43,733 nucleotides of DNA, taken from a virus. Positions 23,507 to 23,868 of this stretch are shown here, piece by piece; positions within the stretch are counted from its first letter, which is position 1, and the number at the start of each line of letters is the position of its first letter. Below the pieces are notes generated by a model. The model was given only the letters and a program-made list of their open reading frames with translations, searched no databases and was not told where the DNA came from. The stretch spans positions 1 through 43,733 of the IMG/VR virus record IMGVR_UViG_3300046691_000054. One strand, 5' to 3'. A program made the position numbers and the translations under genes.

Positions 23507-23557
23507 ACACCCCGGCCATGTCGTTCGGTCGCGAGACCGGGTGACAATGCGGGTGAC

Positions 23558-23583
23558 AAAGGGGTGCGAAATGGCACCTCTTT
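23558..23583 (+). terminator. Possible intrinsic terminator after the integrase
   Basis: AAAGGGGTGC at 23558-23567 pairs with GCACCTCTTT at 23574-23583 (10 bp, one wobble; loop GAAATG). The T-tract is short and part of the stem, so termination may be weak. It would end integrase transcripts just before the tRNA. Confidence 0.5.
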
Positions 23584-23592
23584 GGTGACAAT

Positions 23593-23677
23593 GCGGGCGT
23601 GGCGGAATTGGTAGACGCAGCGGCTTTAGGTGCCGCCGCCGTAAGGTTTAGGGGTTCGAGTCCCTTCGCCCGCACCA
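23593..23677 (+). tRNA. tRNA-Leu (UAG anticodon), complete with CCA; likely attP core
   Basis: A full class II tRNA. Acceptor GCGGGCG/CGCCCGC is perfect; the D-loop contains AATTGGTAGA; the anticodon stem GCGGC/GCCGC encloses TTTAGGT (anticodon UAG); the variable arm is CGCCGTAAGGTTT-like; the T-loop is TTCGAGT; the CCA end is encoded. It is very close to bacterial tRNA-Leu(UAG). CTA codons are uncommon in this GC-rich genome, so codon supply is a poor reason for keeping it; with the integrase directly upstream, a role as attachment site that restores the host gene after integration is more likely. It may also be expressed. Confidence 0.95.
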
Positions 23678-23714
23678 TCGAAGCCACGGGATTTAGGTTC
23701 CCGCGTCACTTATA

Positions 23715-23730
23715 CTACGATTAGCAACTA
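23715..23730 (-). promoter_or_regulatory. Minus-strand motif copy near the attachment site
   Basis: Read on the minus strand, TAGTTGCTAATCGTAG shares ATCGTAG with the early promoter motif and, with its continuation (TATAAG), closely matches the copy at 23790. It points toward the tRNA and integrase. It could be a promoter producing antisense RNA or a protein-binding site. Confidence 0.4.
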
Positions 23731-23747
23731 CATACTAACATATTGAG

Positions 23748-23778
23748 GGCAGTGCAGAAATGCGCTGCCTTTTCTTTT
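23748..23778 (+). terminator. Rho-independent terminator after tRNA-Leu
   Basis: GGCAGTGCA at 23748-23756 pairs with TGCGCTGCC at 23761-23769 (9 bp, one wobble) around a GAAA tetraloop and is followed by TTTTCTTTT. It should end + strand transcription of the lysogeny module before the ligase/polymerase genes. Confidence 0.92.
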
Positions 23779-23789
23779 GCGTGCTCATA

Positions 23790-23805
23790 CTACGATAAGA
23801 AGGTG
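23790..23805 (-). promoter_or_regulatory. Minus-strand copy of the early promoter motif
   Basis: The minus strand reads CACCTTCTTATCGTAG, matching the + strand copies at 27180 and 18813 in nearly every position. Transcription from it would run leftward through the terminator region, tRNA and integrase, antisense to int. Confidence 0.5.
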
Positions 23806-23868
23806 GATATGGGTGACACCCGCTTTGGTGACAGTGGAGCGGTGACAAAGTGACAATCAGGAGAACAC

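What the first reader, a model, noticed from the sequence alone, without database searches (positions are those of the whole stretch)
23540..23855. Seven GGTGACA repeats bracket the tRNA-Leu: an attP with arm sites in a T7-like phage
Three copies lie left and four right of the tRNA-Leu, all in the same orientation, between the integrase stop and the ligase start. I saw no other cluster; one further isolated copy is near 17608. This is the geometry expected for integrase arm-type sites around a core, which to my knowledge is little described for integrase-carrying autographiviruses.
Basis: partly seen in the sequence, partly recalled or inferred. Interest (0 to 1): 0.75.

Follow-up and report, generated by a model that had tools for sequence, protein, structure and literature searches.

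The report
Phage attachment site with spare tRNA
The repeats are the probable integrase-binding arms of the site through which this T7-like phage enters its host chromosome; entry should cut the host's only copy of one leucine tRNA gene in two, and the tRNA the phage carries between the repeats is the replacement that keeps the lysogen alive.

Summary
The repeats are real: six exact GGTGACA (23540-23847) plus one AGTGACA (23849), all on the + strand, against about 0.02 expected. Reading them as integrase arm sites is well supported: their positions relative to the core (about -150, -139, -107; +121, +136, +150) hold in close relatives, and the word changes when the integrase N-terminal domain changes. 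The tRNA is not the core. The core is a copy of the tRNA's 7-nt anticodon loop, TTTAGGT, at 23692-23698 inside an inverted repeat. Six related prophages show the crossover in the anticodon loop of a host tRNA-Leu, which is severed and not rebuilt. In four of these lysogens the phage-borne tRNA is the only intact gene of that isoacceptor found, and core and tRNA switch together (UAG or UAA). Empty sites in relatives hold the intact gene. This is tRNA-dependent lysogeny, shown genetically in mycobacteriophages and noted in two T7-like Sinorhizobium prophages. The window is a new member, with the att site resolved. The most novel lead is a 1.28-kb integrase-less element, with its own arms and tRNA, inserted in the attP of a near-identical phage. 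Binding and genetics were not testable.

The parts
21998..22378 (+). MarR-like regulator ORF directly upstream of int
   Evidence: PF12802 and PF01047
22391..23506 (+). tyrosine integrase (371 aa, TTG start); residues 1-50 are the conserved N-terminal, presumed arm-binding, part
   Evidence: PF00589, E 8.7e-13; translation; N-terminal comparison
23540..23546 (+). P-side arm 1, GGTGACA
23552..23558 (+). P-side arm 2, GGTGACA
23584..23590 (+). P-side arm 3, GGTGACA
23593..23677 (+). complete tRNA-Leu(UAG) with encoded CCA; replacement tRNA
   Evidence: ARAGORN; Rfam RF00005 53.8 bits
23687..23703 (+). attP core CGGGA-TTTAGGT-TCCCG; the 7-bp overlap TTTAGGT is 23692-23698
   Evidence: crossover placed by prophage junctions of relatives
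23709..23724 (+). first of two similar motifs (CTTATACTACGATTAG) flanking a hairpin; function unknown
   Evidence: the repeat finder D6; similar motifs in relatives
23748..23780 (+). terminator-like hairpin GGCAG...CTGCC followed by T-rich tract
   Evidence: read from the sequence; not scored with a terminator tool
23784..23799 (+). second motif (CTCATACTACGATAAG)
23812..23818 (+). P'-side arm 1, GGTGACA
23827..23833 (+). P'-side arm 2, GGTGACA
23841..23847 (+). P'-side arm 3, GGTGACA
23849..23855 (+). P'-side arm 4, variant AGTGACA
23869..24555 (+). ATP-dependent DNA ligase ORF, first gene on the P' side
   Evidence: PF14743 and PF04679
24518..27178 (+). T7-type single-subunit RNA polymerase
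   Evidence: PF00940, E 1.4e-104

Best explanation
The region is the attP of a temperate T7-like phage that uses tRNA-dependent lysogeny. The integrase N-terminal domain binds the GGTGACA arms (three on the P side, three to four on the P' side), and its catalytic domain cuts at the inverted core CGGGA-TTTAGGT-TCCCG. It recombines the 7-bp TTTAGGT with the identical anticodon loop of the host's tRNA-Leu(UAG) gene. Because attP carries no tRNA half next to the core, the host gene is split and not rebuilt. The complete tRNA-Leu(UAG) inside the P arm replaces it in the lysogen. Shown from sequence: arms, core, junctions and split host genes in relatives, sole intact copy in four lysogens, empty sites. 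Inferred: that the arms bind integrase, that the window phage does as its relatives do, and that the tRNA is needed for survival.
For: Arm spacing to the core is conserved in six related phages, in prophage ends and with a different arm word in L241. The arm word tracks integrase residues 1-50: L010 76% and L009 68% identical there, about 35% in the catalytic part, same word. Junctions: host tRNA 5' half joined to P' in L015 and L016; both ends in R. palustris XCP and in G082, G022, G276, all T7-like (XCP by terL, marR and int). Only the severed host half and the intact phage gene of that isoacceptor in G009, G082, G022, G276. Core and phage tRNA switch together between UAG and UAA. Intact gene at empty sites.
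Against: No lysogen of the window phage itself was found. Binding, excision and the need for the tRNA are untested. The sole-copy count rests on a sequence pattern and on assemblies that may be incomplete. For the close UAG relatives (L015, L016) only one junction was available.
Confidence: 0.9

Rival explanations
1. The tRNA gene itself is the attP core and integration rebuilds the host tRNA in the classical way.
For: Most tRNA-targeting phages do this, and the tRNA lies between the arms.
Against: Six prophages show the crossover at the second anticodon-loop copy with the host gene left split; the arms are about equally distant from that copy, not from the tRNA.
Confidence: 0.03
2. The repeats are replication iterons or operator sites (for example of the MarR-like regulator) rather than integrase arms.
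For: Tandem GGTGACA clusters without an A1-like integrase nearby exist in other viral contigs.
Against: Spacing is locked to the recombination core, the word changes with the integrase N-terminal domain, and prophage ends carry P or P' arms as expected.
Confidence: 0.07
3. The tRNA-Leu is a leftover of imprecise excision or a translation aid in lytic growth, not a lysogeny gene.
For: The leftover reading was proposed for LUZ100 and for pelagiphages (PMC10134795); phage tRNAs can have other roles.
Against: The phage tRNA always has the anticodon of the gene that integration destroys and is the only intact copy found in four lysogens. LUZ100 and RHEph01 also have the anticodon loop of their own tRNA in a candidate core after int.
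Confidence: 0.06

Closest known systems
tRNA-dependent lysogeny of mycobacteriophages (Fionnbharth and others; PMC10865867)
   Different: Different phage group and hosts; here tRNA-Leu(UAG) or (UAA) rather than Lys(UUU) or Leu(CAA), and a core centred on the whole 7-nt anticodon loop; requirement of the tRNA not tested here
Lo5R7ANS-like (T7-like) prophages of Sinorhizobium meliloti AK21 and RU11/001 (PMC11476347)
   Same: T7-like prophage that disrupts tRNA-Leu(UAG) in its centre and brings its own tRNA-Leu(UAG)
   Different: The passages read do not describe arms or the anticodon-loop core; those prophages were not compared by sequence here
Pseudomonas phage LUZ100 and Rhizobium phage RHEph01
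   Same: T7-like, tRNA-Leu next to int, copy of its anticodon loop after int
   Different: tRNA lies before int on the opposite strand; other repeats; integration site not shown
T7-like cyanophages P-SSP7 and S-TIP37 (PMC8776855)
   Same: Integrase and attP downstream of int, target tRNA-Leu
   Different: attP is a 39-bp match to part of a tRNA-Leu gene, not a short core plus complete replacement tRNA
Lambda-type heterobivalent integrases (own knowledge)
   Same: Direct-repeat arms on both sides of an inverted core with a 7-bp overlap
   Different: No IHF consensus match found by a strict scan of 23501-23870; biochemistry unknown

Membership tests
tRNA-dependent lysogeny | Tyrosine-family integrase | tested here: met
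   PF00589
tRNA-dependent lysogeny | Short common core inside a host tRNA gene; tRNA not rebuilt at attL or attR | tested here: met
   Junctions in six related prophages; the window's own lysogen was not found
[quoted passage not shown]
   UAG with TTTAGGT, UAA with CTTAAAA
tRNA-dependent lysogeny | Disrupted host gene is the only copy | tested here: met
   Pattern counts in four lysogens; limited by pattern and assembly
tRNA-dependent lysogeny | Phage tRNA required for lysogeny | not testable with these tools
   Needs deletion mutants
Lambda-type attP with arm-type sites | Repeated sites at fixed distances on both sides of the core | tested here: met
Lambda-type attP with arm-type sites | Integrase N-terminal domain binds the arms | not testable with these tools
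   Only co-variation of word and N-terminal domain
T7-like phages (Autographiviridae) | Single-subunit RNA polymerase plus T7-type replication, portal, capsid and terminase genes | tested here: met

The most novel reading that the evidence does not exclude
A 1.28-kb integrase-less element sits exactly between two TTTAGGT cores in the attP of a near-identical phage (contig IMGVR_UViG_3300046665_000193; L002 about 11308-12593). It carries its own arms at distances like the phage's, its own tRNA-Leu(UAG) and a trypsin-like gene. It may be a satellite that borrows the phage integrase, brings its own replacement tRNA and travels inside the phage genome.
Probability: 0.35. Interest if true: 0.72.

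Novelty: new member of a known kind. Interest (0 to 1): 0.55.

Why it matters
It explains why several integrase-carrying T7-like phages keep one tRNA-Leu beside int: the gene would be a condition for lysogeny, not a relic. It extends tRNA-dependent lysogeny, shown genetically in actinobacteriophages, across T7-like phages, with two isoacceptors used by related integrases and an att site readable to the base. It gives direct tests (delete the tRNA, footprint the arms) and predicts the target tRNA genes of LUZ100 and RHEph01.

Tried and rejected
(1) Idea that the phage tRNA's anticodon stem is altered to escape the phage's own integrase: in the window group the base before the loop is never A in the phage tRNA but is A in attP and attB. 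The UAA phages and L239/L241 break the rule, so it is not claimed. (2) GGTGACA tandem as a general integrase marker: a viral-contig scan gave 119 stretches (80 loci held), few with an A1-like integrase. A 399-genome scan found 35 genomes against one hit of the reversed control pattern; most of those places were not followed up. (3) The G001 insert as host DNA: its ends are not tRNA halves. (4) Relatives of the insert's protein: none in 399 genomes (no positive control), in phage records or in other viral contigs; only L009 has a homologue, beside its int. (5) The TACTACGAT pair as phage promoters: no support found; LUZ100's annotated phi1 gave no help. (6) HTVC019P, Pasto, Lo5R7ANS, CRP-113 and ProddE: no complete tRNA in the 3.8-4.0 kb around int that was read.

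Full report
OBSERVATION. The window is a virus record with a 127-bp terminal repeat, so it closes into a circle: a free phage form with an uninterrupted attP. Between the integrase stop (23506) and the ligase ORF (23869) lie six exact GGTGACA and one AGTGACA, all on the + strand, bracketing tRNA-Leu(UAG) at 23593-23677. The cluster is far beyond chance (expected about 0.02; P about 1e-13). Fifteen further exact copies are scattered over both strands, so the statement that only one other copy exists is wrong, but there is no second dense cluster of this word.

RELATIVES. Seven viral loci with 75-100% identical integrases were found. The six that extend beyond int keep the order int, GGTGACA arms, tRNA-Leu(UAG), core loop. 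All six also have GGTGACA copies on the right; in L002 these belong to an inserted element described below. Measured from the base before the core loop, the arms lie at about -150, -139, -107 and +121, +136, +150, with some positions missing in some phages. Two further phages (L239, L241) use another word, TGGGAAAA, around a tRNA-Leu(UAG) and a second TTTAGGT. In L241 the copies or close variants lie at -159, -147, -130 and +122, +137, +150, with additional ones at -138, -16 and +85, and its integrase N-terminal part is 22% identical to the window's. L010/L021 and L009 share only about 35% of the catalytic part with the window but 76% and 68% of residues 1-50, and keep GGTGACA. Integrases with divergent N-termini (L029, L030) show other repeats. 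This is what is expected if the N-terminal domain reads the arms.

THE CORE IS NOT THE tRNA. The 7-nt anticodon loop TTTAGGT recurs beyond the 3' end of the tRNA, at 23692-23698, inside CGGGA-TTTAGGT-TCCCG. Prophage ends show that this copy is the crossover. L015 (its integrase, L005, is 79% identical) and L016 join the 5' half of a host tRNA-Leu(UAG), ending at TTTAGGT, to the phage P' side. Rhodopseudomonas palustris XCP has both ends: the phage core CTTAAAA joined to the 3' half of host tRNA-Leu(UAA) next to int, and the 5' half joined to the P' arms about 42.3 kb away. Genomes G082, G022 and G276 give both junctions as well and are T7-like prophages. In G022 the shared sequence is exactly the 7-nt loop, flanked in the inferred attP by a perfect 7-bp inverted repeat (CAGTACC-CTTAAAA-GGTACTG).

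THE tRNA IS A REPLACEMENT. In none of these lysogens is the host tRNA rebuilt. Whole-genome pattern counts find exactly two 3' halves of the affected isoacceptor in each of G009, G082, G022 and G276: the severed host half and the intact phage gene; 5'-half counts agree for G009 and G276. The phage tRNA has the anticodon of the gene it breaks: UAG with core TTTAGGT, UAA with core CTTAAAA. Relatives without the prophage hold the intact gene at the same place: 11 genomes for the UAG site and Rhodopseudomonas relatives for the UAA site, where in L244 the two prophage flanks align with a 7-bp overlap. L251, in a genome drawn from the wider phylum, shows the same combination with the tRNA on the other side of int. 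Isolated phages LUZ100 and RHEph01 carry a tRNA-Leu before int and a copy of its anticodon loop after int.

MECHANISM. Most likely, integrase bridges arms and core, exchanges strands in the 7-bp loop, splits the host tRNA gene and leaves the lysogen dependent on the phage tRNA. The sequence shows the anatomy, the junctions and the sole-copy status in relatives. Integrase binding, essentiality and the behaviour of the window phage itself are inferred.

KNOWN KIND. This matches tRNA-dependent lysogeny, shown genetically in mycobacteriophages (PMC10865867), whose authors asked how prevalent it is outside actinobacteriophages. Two T7-like prophages of S. meliloti with a disrupted and replaced tRNA-Leu(UAG) were reported in 2024 (PMC11476347). 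LUZ100's tRNA-Leu was read as possibly recruited by imprecise excision (PMC10134795). New here, as far as these searches reach, are the base-level att anatomy with arms, the anticodon-loop core, and the two isoacceptors within related T7-like integrases.

MOST NOVEL LEAD. In contig IMGVR_UViG_3300046665_000193 a phage nearly identical to the window has an insert between two cores, 1,285 bp core to core. It carries GGTGACA at +137/+150 and at -123/-100 (and GATGACA at -80), its own tRNA-Leu(UAG) and a trypsin-like gene (Pfam score just below the curated cut-off), but no integrase. The layout is that of an attP x attP insertion of a non-autonomous element. It is a single assembly from a contig that strings two related phages together, so it stays a lead.

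Noticed in passing
L002:11308-12593 (contig IMGVR_UViG_3300046665_000193): Integrase-less 1.28-kb insert between two att cores, with its own arms, tRNA-Leu(UAG) and a trypsin-like gene; possible satellite of the phage.
   Followed up: partly
L009:11104-11934: Trypsin-like gene next to int in an isolate prophage, homologous to the gene in the 1.28-kb insert.
   Followed up: partly
L247 (G037) about 1280-1550: Host tRNA-Leu(UAA) looks split in its anticodon loop, with a different complete tRNA-Leu(UAA) about 140 bp away and no GGTGACA; possibly an unrelated element or remnant with the same strategy.
   Followed up: partly
L229 (G155) and L230 (G212): A region of about 5 kb with an integrase of this family, GGTGACA pairs in inverted orientation at both ends and a complete tRNA-Cys at one end.
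   Followed up: partly
window:23709-23799: Two similar motifs (TACTACGAT) flank a terminator-like hairpin between core and P' arms; similar motifs occur there in relatives. Function unknown.
   Followed up: partly
L222 (LUZ100) and L225 (RHEph01): Both carry tRNA-Leu before int and a copy of its anticodon loop after int, which predicts integration in tRNA-Leu(UAA) and tRNA-Leu(UAG).
   Followed up: partly
contig IMGVR_UViG_3300046665_000193, 1-78980: One contig holds two related phages head to tail (part of one, then a full turn of another); tandem or chimeric assembly.
   Followed up: partly
for example L197, L200, L209: GGTGACAAAACGGTGACA recurs in many genomes of the family; not examined for an integrase or att site.
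   Followed up: no
window:42400-42483: ARAGORN reports a tRNA with a four-base anticodon (tcga), probably spurious.
   Followed up: no
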